A stretch of 56,587 nt of DNA from a virus: the IMG/VR virus record IMGVR_UViG_3300032092_000034, positions 1 through 56,587 of that record; one strand, written 5' to 3'. How positions within the stretch are numbered: the stretch's first letter is position 1; each line of letters begins with the position of its first letter. A program made the translations under genes and the position numbers. The notes under the pieces were generated by a model. It saw only the letters and a list, made by a program, of their open reading frames with translations, ran no database searches and had not been told where the DNA came from. This document shows, piece after piece, positions 4,825-20,533 of this stretch.

Positions 4825-5298
4825 TTACACCATCTTTCCGCGAGTCTTACCCTTGGTACAGCAGCCGTCAGCACGGCTGGAAGCTGTCATGCCGCCTTTG
4901 GCAAATGCTTTACCCATTTCTGTTTTGGTGGTGGGCGCAGTCTTTCTCTTCTGGTAATCTTCCTCGTCTTTTGCTTCTTGCATAGACTGCTTCTGACCTG
5001 CGGTCATTGGCTCTTCTTTACCACGAGACTCACGTTTCATCTCGCTTGCGGCTTCACGGCGATCTTGAGCGCGTTTTTCGTCACCTGCTTTAGTTGCCGT
5101 ACGGTCAGCATTACCAATTGCCGCCATAGTCCCCGCCGCTGCTAATGGAGCACCAAAACCTAAAACTGCAATTTTTTCAGCTTCGGCATCGGGGTTATAT
5201 GATTTTTTGGGTGATGATTTATACCTACCCATTCCTGCGCCAGCGCCGCCACCTTCAAGTGGGTTCAAGTCGGCGTAATGTCTTGAGTGTTTTCCCAT
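4825..5298 (-). CDS. Late protein with shared basic C-terminal tail, 157 residues
   Basis: The N-terminus (MGKHSRHYADLNPLEGG) is Gly-rich. A hydrophobic stretch at ~45-62 ('AVLGFGAPLAAAGTMAAIG') could be a weak membrane or fusion-like segment. A long charged helical part follows (~75-130). The last residues are AKGGMTASSRADGCCTKG plus KTRGKMV, nearly identical to the neighbouring gene's end. Junctions to both neighbours are two bases. The role is unknown; a packaged or ejected protein is one possibility given the block's position. Confidence 0.68.
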   Translation of the reverse strand: MGKHSRHYADLNPLEGGGAGAGMGRYKSSPKKSYNPDAEAEKIAVLGFGAPLAAAGTMAAIGNADRTATKAGDEKRAQDRREAASEMKRESRGKEEPMTAGQKQSMQEAKDEEDYQKRKTAPTTKTEMGKAFAKGGMTASSRADGCCTKGKTRGKMV

Positions 5299-18052: not shown

Positions 18053-18265
18053 ATGGATGGAATGCTCACAATCAAAATGGCGGTAACTCTGCCAACAACT
18101 AAGTACCGCATGAAGCGTGTCACACTAGCCAAGTCATGGTGCAAGCGTAGTGAATGTGATAGTGTGTTTGCCAAGTTTTTAAGTATAAATGACCATATCA
18201 ACCCCACGCTATTGCGTGTGGAATGGATAGCGCAGGAAAGCGTGTTTGCTGGAGATGAGTCTTAA
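18053..18265 (+). CDS. First early gene, 70 residues, function unknown
   Basis: The start follows the conserved early ribosome cassette (TGGAGAATGCAA-ATG). The product (MDGMLTIKMAVTLPTTKYRM, then 'KSWCKRSECDSVFAKFLSIN', ending 'WIAQESVFAGDES') is small and basic in its middle, with an acidic end. No motif is recognised. As the first gene behind the early promoter, and one followed at once by a strong terminator, it may be an early host-takeover protein; this is inference from position. Confidence 0.65.
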   Translation: MDGMLTIKMAVTLPTTKYRMKRVTLAKSWCKRSECDSVFAKFLSINDHINPTLLRVEWIAQESVFAGDES

Positions 18266-18272
18266 TCAACCC

Positions 18273-18296
18273 GCAGGGCGAGAGCCCTGCATTTTT
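18273..18296 (+). terminator. Terminator/attenuator joined to the next ribosome site
   Basis: GCAGGGC-GAGA-GCCCTGC (18273-18290) followed by ATTTTT. The T-tract runs straight into the TGGAG ribosome site of the next gene, so transcripts that read through have a strong hairpin two to six bases before the Shine-Dalgarno sequence. Confidence 0.85.
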
Positions 18297-18306
18297 GGAG
18301 AATGCA

Positions 18307-18552
18307 ATGAAACCCTGGGATGAAATGTCAGTAATGGAAAGAATGCGTGCTGAATACAGCGATTTGCACAAAGATACTTTTGGCTTTCGCCCATCTATTG
18401 AGCACAGAATGGAAATTGCAAAAATGTCAGATAAAGAATTCGTAATGCAATTTGATACCCTGCTCGATATGATGCAATGCGATTCAGAGTTTGAACAGCA
18501 AGTACATATCGAACGCAGGAAATTGGAAAATCGGGATTGGGAAAAAGAGTAA
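18307..18552 (+). CDS. Small early protein, 81 residues
   Basis: MKPWDEMSVMERMRAEYSDL continues 'HKDTFGFRPSIEHRMEIAKM' and ends in a Glu/Arg-rich helix (ERRKLENRDWEKE). The protein is helical and acidic. 'Y.D....FGFRPS' resembles a frequent small phage protein family of unknown function. It uses the TGGAGAATGCA-ATG cassette. Its stop codon TAA lies inside stem I of the hammerhead ribozyme that follows, so ribosomes finishing this gene would cover the ribozyme. Confidence 0.7.
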   Translation: MKPWDEMSVMERMRAEYSDLHKDTFGFRPSIEHRMEIAKMSDKEFVMQFDTLLDMMQCDSEFEQQVHIERRKLENRDWEKE

Positions 18553-18598
18553 CTGATGAGGCTTGAATAGCCGAAACCGCAGGGATGCGGTCTTACTC
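18547..18598 (+). ncRNA. Type I hammerhead self-cleaving ribozyme
   Basis: All conserved elements are present in order. Stem I 5' strand is GAGTAA (18547-18552), then core CTGATGA (18553-18559). Stem II is GGC/GCC with a 7-base loop (18560-18572), then GAAA (18573-18576). Stem III is CCGCA/TGCGG with a GGGA (GNRA) loop (18577-18590), then T18591-C18592. Stem I 3' strand TTACTC (18593-18598) is perfectly complementary to the 5' strand. Cleavage is expected after C18592. Stem I is the open helix, which makes it type I. It sits between two early genes, and the cut would leave a 5'-OH mRNA 26 bases before the next start codon. Confidence 0.9.
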
Positions 18599-18618
18599 AA
18601 CTAACTGGAGAATGCAAA

Positions 18619-18861
18619 ATGTGGACACAATTAAATCTTTTTGACAAACAAACCGAAGTGGAATATGCAATGAGTTTGACATCGGATGAATTACAATCAA
18701 TCAAACAAAGTAGTGAGTATTCATACGAATTGATTAAAAACTTGCGCCATATTGTGCAAAGATGTGAATCAATAAAAAAAGGCGCAGACTTACGCGCAAG
18801 GGCAGAAATAGATGCGTGTTTATTAGGGGTACATAATTTTACGCGTGGATATTCTCGCTAA
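18619..18861 (+). CDS. Small early protein, 80 residues
   Basis: The protein is helical (MWTQLNLFDKQTEVEYAMSL, 'YELIKNLRHIVQRCESIKKG', 'ADLRARAEIDACLLGVHNFT'). No family is recognised. The ribosome cassette is TGGAGAATGCAAA-ATG. It is the gene directly downstream of the hammerhead cleavage site and is closed by a strong terminator, so it forms a short transcription/processing unit with the two preceding small genes. Confidence 0.68.
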   Translation: MWTQLNLFDKQTEVEYAMSLTSDELQSIKQSSEYSYELIKNLRHIVQRCESIKKGADLRARAEIDACLLGVHNFTRGYSR

Positions 18862-18865
18862 ACAC

Positions 18866-18890
18866 AGGGGACTTCGGTCCCCTTTTTATT
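18866..18890 (+). terminator. Strong rho-independent terminator
   Basis: AGGGGAC-TTCG-GTCCCCT then TTTTATTTTT. It ends the first early unit and is followed within 15 bases by repeat copy R1. Confidence 0.92.
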
Positions 18891-19069: not shown

Positions 19070-19720
19070 ATGAACGCAAAGACAAAATCCGCAATAGCCG
19101 TTGAAGCTATTACGCCCCGCGACTTAAAAGACGCGGCCTACAAATTCGCTAAAACCGGCGAAACATCCGCGAGCATTGCTCGCTTTGTGATGGACAATGA
19201 TGCTTCATTCCCTGATGAAGTCAGCAAAGAATTGAAAGCCGATTTAAATGCGGGTTTCATGTTGCGCGCGACTGAATTGTGGGGTGATGAATTCTACAAA
19301 ATCGGTGACGGCGGTACATACATTCCATTGGGCAATTCCATTGTCTTAAAGAATGAAACCCCACAAGGGTCAATCCGCGTCGGTCTGTCCTATTGCTTTG
19401 CAATGAGTCAGCAAGAATTCGGGCAATTAAAAAACAAAGACCCGCAATTACATAGCATTGTCAAACCAATGCGCGACAAATTCAGCAAGTATTCCCACAA
19501 TAATATCGCGGCGCTGAAATTGGCGGCACGCGCTTTGTTGAATGATGGGAAGTCACGCGAACGCGGCGCGACAAAAAACTTCAGCGAAGCATTAGCTGAA
19601 ATGTTTAGCGCATACGATAAACGCGCAAAGAACGCTGAAGCGCGCAATGATGAAACGGCGTCACCGCTTAGATTCAGAGTCGCCGTAGATGCTTTTTGGT
19701 CTGCATACAATAAAAAATAA
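19070..19720 (+). CDS. Early paralogue A, 216 residues, function unknown
   Basis: Opens MNAKTKSAIAVEAITPRDLK. The conserved middle is 'SYCFAMSQQEFGQLKNKDPQ' with 'PMRDKFSKYSHNNIAALKLA', shared with the next gene (QQ.FGQLKN.DP..H, RDKF.KY..N...LK.A.R.L). The rest is helical, without catalytic motif. It has its own promoter, leader hairpin and terminator. The pair lies beside a TTCCAA array that may be an origin, so an origin-binding, regulatory or host-interaction role is possible; none is shown by sequence. Confidence 0.75.
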   Translation: MNAKTKSAIAVEAITPRDLKDAAYKFAKTGETSASIARFVMDNDASFPDEVSKELKADLNAGFMLRATELWGDEFYKIGDGGTYIPLGNSIVLKNETPQGSIRVGLSYCFAMSQQEFGQLKNKDPQLHSIVKPMRDKFSKYSHNNIAALKLAARALLNDGKSRERGATKNFSEALAEMFSAYDKRAKNAEARNDETASPLRFRVAVDAFWSAYNKK

Positions 19721-19737
19721 TTAGCTAATAGTTTTAG

Positions 19738-19762
19738 ACCCCGCTTCGGCGGGGTTTTTTTT
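19738..19762 (+). terminator. Strong rho-independent terminator
   Basis: CCCCGC-TTCG-GCGGGG followed by eight T. It ends the paralogue A transcript; repeat R2 begins 26 bases later. Confidence 0.93.
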
Positions 19763-19954: not shown

Positions 19955-20533
19955 ATGAATGCAAAGCAAAACTTCGTGGTTAAGTCCTTCAAGGATGCCG
20001 CCATTATTTCGGCGACCCTCGGCGAGCGCATGGCAACAGTTGCCCAGTTCATCGTCACCCAGTGTCCTAATTTCTTGGATGATGTACCCAAGGAAGTCAA
20101 GGCGGAACTGCATGAAGGTTGGGCGGTTCGTTGGCAGGAACTCAATCCTGCTACGGAATACTCAACCGAATGGGTTCCCAAGAAAGGTGGCGGGTTTGTG
20201 GCAACCCTTGCCTTTGCCATGTCTTACAGTCAACAGGCTTTCGGGCAGTTGAAAAATGAGGACCCAGTAAAGCATGGCGTCATCAAGGATGTTCGGGACA
20301 AGTTCAATAAATATTGTTCTAACCGAATGAAGGACTTGAAGAAGGCGGTTCGTGACCTCAACCCTGAGACAAGAACTAGGACACAATCCGACAACTTCGC
20401 AACTTATATCGAGAAAACGATGGATAACATCAAGACACGATGCAAGAATGCGGTTGCAAGGGATGACGCAACAGCCAACGAACTTAAAACGAGAATGGCA
20501 ATACAAGCATTCATGGATACTCTGAACAAGTAA
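19955..20533 (+). CDS. Early paralogue B, 192 residues, function unknown
   Basis: The start MNAKQNFVVKSFKDAAIIS follows TGGAGAAATGCAT. The conserved block 'FAMSYSQQAFGQLKNEDPVK' and 'VRDKFNKYCSNRMKDLKKAV' aligns with paralogue A, while the N-terminal third is diverged. It ends in a helical 'RMAIQAFMDTLNK', also parallel to A (RVAVDAFWSAYNKK). The two genes arose by duplication together with their promoter, leader and upstream repeat. No enzymatic motif is visible. Confidence 0.75.
   Translation: MNAKQNFVVKSFKDAAIISATLGERMATVAQFIVTQCPNFLDDVPKEVKAELHEGWAVRWQELNPATEYSTEWVPKKGGGFVATLAFAMSYSQQAFGQLKNEDPVKHGVIKDVRDKFNKYCSNRMKDLKKAVRDLNPETRTRTQSDNFATYIEKTMDNIKTRCKNAVARDDATANELKTRMAIQAFMDTLNK

What the first reader, a model, noticed from the sequence alone, without database searches (positions are those of the whole stretch)
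18547..18598. Type I hammerhead ribozyme between two early phage genes
A complete hammerhead is present: stem I GAGTAA/TTACTC, core CTGATGA, stem II GGC/GCC, GAAA, stem III CCGCA/TGCGG with a GNRA loop, and a UC cleavage site. Every core position fits and every stem pairs perfectly. The upstream gene's stop codon is inside stem I, and cleavage would leave the next gene with a 26-base 5'-OH leader. This suggests self-processing of a polycistronic early mRNA. Ribosomes translating the upstream gene to its end would unfold the ribozyme, linking translation to cleavage.
Basis: partly seen in the sequence, partly recalled or inferred. Interest (0 to 1): 0.92.

Follow-up and report, generated by a model that had tools for sequence, protein, structure and literature searches.

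The report
Self-cutting RNA between phage genes
Between two small genes of an uncultured phage lies a complete hammerhead ribozyme, an RNA that should cut itself, and close relatives sit just before the start codons of small genes in many other phages, up to 14 in a row, which suggests these phages use it to cut long messages into separate ones.

Summary
Window 18547-18598 (+) is a perfect canonical type I hammerhead (6-bp stem I, 4-bp stem II, 6-bp stem III, intact core, C17), with the predicted cut at 18592/18593. Chance is excluded: none in 165 Mb of simulated DNA. Rfam misses it: RF00163 and RF00008 do not match, and RAGATH-1 reaches only 28 of 56 bits. A covariance model built only from unrelated phage contigs scores it 78.3 bits, E 6e-17.

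It belongs to an uncatalogued type I class with fixed 6/4-bp geometry, a UNANU loop II and an unsearched A before stem I (202/204). Of 192 copies, 184 lie just upstream of an ORF; the median cut-to-ATG distance is 26 nt, exactly as here. Copies form arrays (9 and 14 in about 4-6 kb), and cores outside the search patterns are intact in 58/59. In the window's own relatives the ribozyme is found only where gene A is present.

Most likely it cuts the gene A-gene B mRNA, giving A a structured 3' end and B a 5'-OH leader. Cleavage itself is inferred. Perreault et al. 2011 already proposed hammerhead processing of phage transcripts, so this is a new member of a known kind. Pelagiphage HTVC022P, with public RNA-seq, makes it testable.

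The parts
18053..18265 (+). gene 0: 70-aa ORF, first gene of the small rightward unit
   Evidence: sequence; homologues at the same place in relatives; no PHROG match
18273..18290 (+). terminator-like hairpin followed by ATTTTTGGAG; occupies the gene 0 / gene A junction (in relatives without gene A, the gene 0 / gene B junction)
18307..18552 (+). gene A: 81 aa from ATG 18307 (in-frame TTG at 18295); its TAA is inside stem I
   Evidence: no PHROG match
18546..18546 (+). A directly 5' of stem I, conserved in 202 of 204 copies; candidate tertiary-contact base
18547..18598 (+). type I hammerhead ribozyme, whole
18547..18552 (+). stem I, 5' strand GAGTAA
   Evidence: covariation
18553..18559 (+). 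catalytic core CTGATGA (C3-A9)
   Evidence: core conservation
18560..18572 (+). stem II 4 bp GGCT/AGCC with loop TGAAT (class consensus UNANU)
18573..18575 (+). core G12 A13 A14
18576..18591 (+). stem III 6 bp ACCGCA/TGCGGT with GNRA-type loop GGGA
18592..18592 (+). C17; predicted cut between 18592 and 18593
   Evidence: position in the alignment to the hammerhead consensus; cleavage not tested
18593..18618 (+). predicted 26-nt 5'-OH leader of gene B: stem I 3' strand (18593-18598), then AA, then Shine-Dalgarno GGAG (18607-18610)
   Evidence: class median 26 nt
18619..18861 (+). gene B: 80 aa
   Evidence: no PHROG match
18866..18883 (+). intrinsic-terminator-like hairpin followed by a T run; probable end of the unit

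Best explanation
It is a cis-cleaving type I hammerhead ribozyme that punctuates the transcript of a small phage operon (gene 0, hairpin, gene A, ribozyme, gene B, terminator). Shown: structure, selection on core and stems, position and genomic association. Inferred: once RNA polymerase has made stem III and the 3' strand of stem I, the RNA folds, with loop II probably docking against the A-rich end of stem I, and cuts after C18592. The upstream mRNA then ends in stems II and III and a 2',3'-cyclic phosphate. Gene B is left with a 26-nt 5'-OH leader carrying its own Shine-Dalgarno sequence. The two genes thereby become separate messages that can decay and be translated at their own rates, without host RNase III or RNase E. 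The ribozyme plus leader also behaves as an exchangeable module at gene junctions.
For: Independent covariance model (window and its relatives excluded): 78.3 bits, E 6e-17. Covariation among 81 copies: 14 of 16 pairs change on both sides, score 0.787 against 0.160 shuffled and at most 0.092 slid; in loci fetched only by protein homology, 100% paired with 5 compensated pairs. A pattern that says nothing of stem I gave a stem of 4 bp or more in 61/122 matches against about 3.5% with shuffled partners. Core: 58 of 59 folds outside both search patterns are intact, one has a single mismatch. Position: 184/192 precede an ATG ORF within 70 nt (33% at random positions, 11% on the opposite strand); 181/192 have an upstream stop nearby; median cut-to-ATG 26 nt. 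Arrays of 9 and 14 punctuate consecutive small genes; in the 14-copy array the two truncated copies are the two without an ORF directly behind them. Published precedent: Perreault et al. 2011 (PMC3088659) found clustered hammerheads flanking phage genes, cleaving in vitro and, for the A. tumefaciens triple, in E. coli.
Against: No cleavage, RNA end or expression data for this locus. In longer transcripts the complete hammerhead is only about 7-38% of the predicted equilibrium ensemble, with a competing fold slightly better by 18660, although it is transcribed first and would fold first. The window has a single copy, and seven relatives have gene B with neither gene A nor the ribozyme, so it is not essential. 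Distant relatives HTVC023P, HTVC027P and DSL-LC04 have none.
Confidence: 0.77

Rival explanations
1. Translation-gated switch: ribosomes finishing gene A run into stem I and hold the ribozyme open, so cleavage happens only when gene A is not being translated, and gene B expression reports on it.
For: TAA lies inside stem I here; in 117 of 181 copies the upstream stop is within the ribozyme.
Against: The stop position is not conserved across the class or between orthologues. The core contains TGATGA and so supplies stop codons by itself, which explains the overlap in compact genomes.
Confidence: 0.1
2. DNA-level module: the conserved ribozyme-plus-leader is kept mainly as a recombination seam by which small early genes are swapped, and cleavage is incidental.
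For: The window's ribozyme (before gene B) and L013's first ribozyme (before gene A) are 52/52 identical but at different junctions, with the same leader. The ribozyme at this locus is found only with gene A: 9 of 11 contigs with gene A, 0 of 7 without. Hairpins with a similar leader occupy the slot in other relatives.
Against: Compensatory base changes and an intact catalytic core need selection on RNA; a DNA seam would conserve sequence, not pairing.
Confidence: 0.1
3. Structural 3'-end or stability hairpin, or weak terminator, with the hammerhead fold used for its stems only.
For: In relatives the same slot holds a plain GC hairpin.
Against: A stability hairpin needs no three-way junction and no invariant CUGANGA...GAA core; no T run follows.
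Confidence: 0.06
4. Flanking ribozymes release a gene-length RNA that is ligated into a circle (retrozyme-like).
For: L013-L016 have a ribozyme on both sides of gene A.
Against: The window has one copy only. No RtcB in 12 tested records; no T4-type RNA ligase match either, but that search had no positive control. Perreault et al. looked for circular products and saw none.
Confidence: 0.03

Closest known systems
Clustered phage and prophage hammerheads of Perreault et al. 2011 (PLoS Comput Biol, PMC3088659)
   Same: Canonical hammerhead cores next to phage genes, several copies flanking single genes or short blocks, proposed to process long phage transcripts; some shown to cleave in vitro and one set in E. 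coli.
   Different: Those shown were clusters of types I, II and III in prophages. Here one uniform type I class (6/4 bp, UNANU loop, A before stem I) sits at a fixed short distance before start codons, up to 14 copies, and the window copy is new. Whether that paper's supplementary alignments already hold members of this class could not be checked.
Rfam RF00163 Hammerhead_1 and RF00008 Hammerhead_3
   Same: Same catalytic core and three-way junction.
   Different: Neither model matches the window even at E 10 in the genome search.
Rfam RF03152 RAGATH-1 hammerhead
   Same: Best Rfam match, 28.2 bits; shares core and stem I/III topology.
   Different: Below the gathering score (56.3). RAGATH-1 has a 1-bp stem II in its consensus line and an extra upstream hairpin; the window has a 4-bp stem II with a UNANU loop.
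Type I hammerhead of Schistosoma mansoni and type III hammerheads of satellite RNAs
   Same: Loop II-stem I contacts that give fast cleavage (PMC6155905).
   Different: There stem I has an internal or terminal loop; here conserved single-stranded A residues flank an open 6-bp stem I and a contact is only inferred.
RNase III processing of T7 early mRNA
   Same: What it would work like: cutting an early polycistronic mRNA between genes (from general knowledge).
   Different: Protein-dependent, and leaves 5'-phosphate and 3'-OH ends; here the RNA would cut itself and leave a 5'-OH and a cyclic phosphate.

Membership tests
Hammerhead ribozyme, type I | core CUGANGA...GAA...A15.1-U16.1, H17 | tested here: met
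   CTGATGA 18553-18559, GAA 18573-18575, A18576-T18591, C18592
Hammerhead ribozyme, type I | three stems meeting at the core, stem I open, II and III capped by loops | tested here: met
   minimum-energy fold; covariation in all three stems
Hammerhead ribozyme, type I | matches a covariance model made from other members | tested here: met
   R2, built without the window group: 78.3 bits, E 6e-17
Hammerhead ribozyme, type I | match to Rfam RF00163 at the gathering score | tested here: not met
   no match. A database threshold, not a defining feature of the ribozyme; the same scan at gathering score also misses the L013, L016, L260, L262 and nine-copy L266 ribozymes
[quoted passage not shown]
   4-bp stem II, UNANU loop, 6-bp stem I and A at -1 co-occur (32 of 34 copies with a 4+5+4 stem II in a scan that did not specify them); no 3D test
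Hammerhead ribozyme, type I | self-cleavage leaving 5'-OH and 2',3'-cyclic phosphate | not testable with these tools
   needs RNA work
RAGATH-1 hammerhead (RF03152) | gathering score 56.3 bits | tested here: not met
   28.2 bits
Phage transcript-processing hammerheads (Perreault 2011) | same strand, between phage genes | tested here: met
   terminase and other phage genes in the window; ribozyme between genes A and B
Phage transcript-processing hammerheads (Perreault 2011) | several copies flanking genes | tested here: met
   not in the window (one copy) but in its relatives L013-L016 (two copies) and in unrelated phages (up to 14)

The most novel reading that the evidence does not exclude
A widespread, uncatalogued class of type I hammerheads is a general gene-punctuation system of phages: one ribozyme about 26 nt before each start codon turns an early operon into single-gene 5'-OH messages without host nucleases, and ribozyme-plus-leader units move as cassettes with the small genes they serve.
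Probability: 0.5. Interest if true: 0.75.

Novelty: new member of a known kind. Interest (0 to 1): 0.57.

Why it matters
What prokaryotic and phage hammerheads do has been an open question since they were found (PMC6155905). This class gives a sharp hypothesis, one cut just before the start codon of each small gene, and examples in cultured phages (Pelagibacter phages HTVC019P, HTVC022P, HTVC131P and Jormungand; Flavobacterium phages elemoB and elemoC). One of them, HTVC022P, already has public infection RNA-seq (PRJNA1253180, PMC12753301), so the central prediction can be checked without new experiments. It would also show that a current Rfam search at curated thresholds overlooks a common phage ribozyme.

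Tried and rejected
Rfam full scan at E 1 and local scan at E 10: only a RAGATH-1 match below its cut-off, plus an RsmY match that is mainly a shared terminator hairpin. BLASTN of the 651-nt neighbourhood in cultured phages: nothing; the 81-nt query found the pelagiphage and Flavobacterium phage members. Further ribozyme copies in the window: none. Phage RNA polymerase as a constant partner: found in 1 of 16 records over the cut-off, rejected. RNA ligases as partners: no RtcB in 12 records; the T4 RNA ligase 1 search had no positive control. Bacterial genomes: 16 pattern matches, only three score with the family model. Literature: nine searches gave only Perreault 2011 and reviews as direct precedent; no paper on a ribozyme in pelagiphages was found in this library, which lacks most subscription journals. 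Chance rejected.

Full report
WHAT IS THERE. The 52 nt at 18547-18598 read GAGTAA CTGATGA GGCT[TGAAT]AGCC GAA ACCGCA[GGGA]TGCGGT C^TTACTC. Every position required of a hammerhead core is present and all 16 base pairs are Watson-Crick. Stem I is the open stem, so the type is I. The predicted cut is between 18592 and 18593, 26 nt before the ATG of the next gene, which has a Shine-Dalgarno GGAG at 18607-18610. The isolated segment folds into exactly this structure (-18.6 kcal/mol, z -3.3). A strict finder sees one copy in the window and none in 165 million bases simulated from the window's dinucleotide frequencies, nor in about 5 Mb of reversed phage DNA.

RFAM. No Rfam hammerhead model reaches its threshold. 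Hammerhead_1 and Hammerhead_3 do not match at all. RAGATH-1 hammerhead gives 28.2 bits against a cut-off of 56.3. The same library at gathering thresholds also misses the ribozymes in L013, L016, L260, L262 and the nine in L266, so the silence is a gap in the library.

A CLASS OF ITS OWN. An A directly before stem I, which no search pattern named, is present in 202 of 204. In the first scan, which did not specify loop II, stem I or flanks, 32 of the 34 copies with a 4+5+4 stem II hairpin also had the UNA loop, a stem I of 6 bp or more and the A. This coupling is what a loop II-stem I contact would give, but the contact is inferred. The first pattern also said nothing about stem I: 61 of 122 matches have 4 or more pairs there, against about 3.5% with shuffled partners. 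In the alignment of 81 copies, 14 of 16 pairs show changes on both sides (covariation 0.787; shuffled 0.160; slid at most 0.092). That set was chosen by a finder that requires pairing, so the smaller set fetched only by protein homology matters more: 9 sequences, 100% paired, 5 pairs with compensatory changes, no slid register comparable.

INDEPENDENT TEST. Model R2 was built from 61 unrelated contig copies, without the window or its relatives. It scores the window at 78.3 bits, E 6e-17, and also finds copies in cultured Pelagibacter and Flavobacterium phages.

SELECTION ON CATALYSIS. Allowing up to two core mismatches and asking only for stems, 59 distinct copies lie outside both search patterns: 58 have an intact core and one has a single mismatch; reversed sequence gives none. 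That is what is expected if the RNA must cut.

WHERE IT SITS. Of 192 copies with enough flank, 184 have an ATG ORF within 70 nt downstream (33% at random positions on the same strand, 11% on the opposite strand), and 181 have an upstream stop close by. The median distance from cut to ATG is 26 nt, the value found in the window. The upstream stop lies before stem I (64), in its 5' strand (63) or further in (54). Arrays make the point most clearly. L266 (part of a 51-kb phage record) has 9 ribozymes in 4.3 kb, each before one or more small ORFs. L235 has 14 matches in 6.3 kb; 12 are followed by an ATG ORF 7-14 nt behind the motif, mostly one gene per interval, and the two truncated copies are the two that are not.

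THE WINDOW'S OWN RELATIVES. One search compares 18 distinct contigs whose terminases are at least 79% identical to the window's. Order gene 0-hairpin-gene A-ribozyme-gene B: window, L003, L004, L005. Gene 0-ribozyme-gene A-ribozyme-gene B: L013, L014. Ribozyme-gene A-ribozyme without gene 0: L015, L016. Gene A with one ribozyme further downstream: L018. Gene A without ribozyme: L017, L019. No gene A and no ribozyme: L001, L002, L006-L010. So the ribozyme occurs in 9 of 11 contigs with gene A and 0 of 7 without; a Fisher calculation by hand gives p about 0.001, but the contigs are related, so that number is only a guide. The window's ribozyme is identical over 52 nt to the first ribozyme of L013, although one precedes gene B and the other gene A. 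Ribozyme plus leader therefore moves between junctions. In relatives without it, the slot holds a plain hairpin followed by a similar leader.

MECHANISM. Shown: structure, covariation, core conservation, placement. Inferred: co-transcriptional cutting; an upstream mRNA capped at its 3' end by stems II and III; a downstream mRNA with a 5'-OH and its own ribosome-binding site; independent decay of the two messages. General knowledge of bacterial decay suggests a 5'-OH end is a poor entry point for pyrophosphohydrolase- and RNase E-type 5'-end-dependent decay, but RNase J can act on such ends, so the effect on stability is not predictable without knowing the host. Equilibrium folding of longer transcripts puts the full hammerhead at 7-38% of the ensemble, with a competing fold in 181 nt; sequential folding would favour the ribozyme, since the competing partner is made later. 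The translation-coupling idea is open.

HOST AND PHAGE. The window carries a terminase, a DNA polymerase and a primase/helicase-like protein. Its terminase is nearest (47-52%) to Phage DSL-LC04 and to Pelagibacter phages HTVC023P and HTVC027P, which lack the ribozyme. The host is unknown.

KNOWN OR NEW. Perreault et al. 2011 (PMC3088659) reported clustered hammerheads flanking genes in prophages, showed cleavage in vitro and for one set in E. coli, and proposed processing into gene-length mRNAs. A review describes their role in prokaryotes as open (PMC6155905). The kind is therefore known; this is a new member. What I did not find in the literature available here is the uniform class, its fixed distance to start codons, arrays of 9-14, the link to an exchangeable small gene, or members in pelagiphages.

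TESTABILITY. HTVC022P carries a member with predicted cut 2353/2354 in MH598798.1, and its infection transcriptome is public under PRJNA1253180 (PMC12753301).

Noticed in passing
L235:2289-8613: Fourteen hammerhead matches in 6.3 kb of one phage contig; 12 directly precede an ATG ORF, mostly one gene per interval. The two truncated copies (2623, 3715) have no ORF directly behind them.
   Followed up: partly
L266:1946-6225: Nine hammerheads of the same class in a 4.3-kb run of small genes of a 51-kb phage record.
   Followed up: partly
L260:2948-3008, L261:38219-38279, L263:2658-2720, L269:1196-1258: Hammerheads of this class in cultured Pelagibacter phages, in a stretch with few or no annotated genes upstream of the MarR-like gene; the cut is after A rather than C.
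   Followed up: partly
L262:11938-12045 (MT497067.1 16937-17044): The annotated antisense 'hypothetical protein' elemo141A_phanotate42 in Flavobacterium phage elemoC lies on top of a hammerhead and is probably a false gene call.
   Followed up: no
window 18273-18290; L017 about 4955-4990: In relatives the junction slot used by the ribozyme is filled by a plain GC hairpin or a palindrome, with a similar CTGGAG leader behind it: different RNA elements seem interchangeable there.
   Followed up: partly
window 19070-19717 and 19955-20530: Two adjacent paralogous proteins (about 35% identical) of unknown family, conserved in most relatives.
   Followed up: no
window 19614-19758: Below-threshold RsmY match, due mainly to an identical terminator hairpin (CCCCGCTTCGGCGGGG); probably a terminator, not RsmY.
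   Followed up: no
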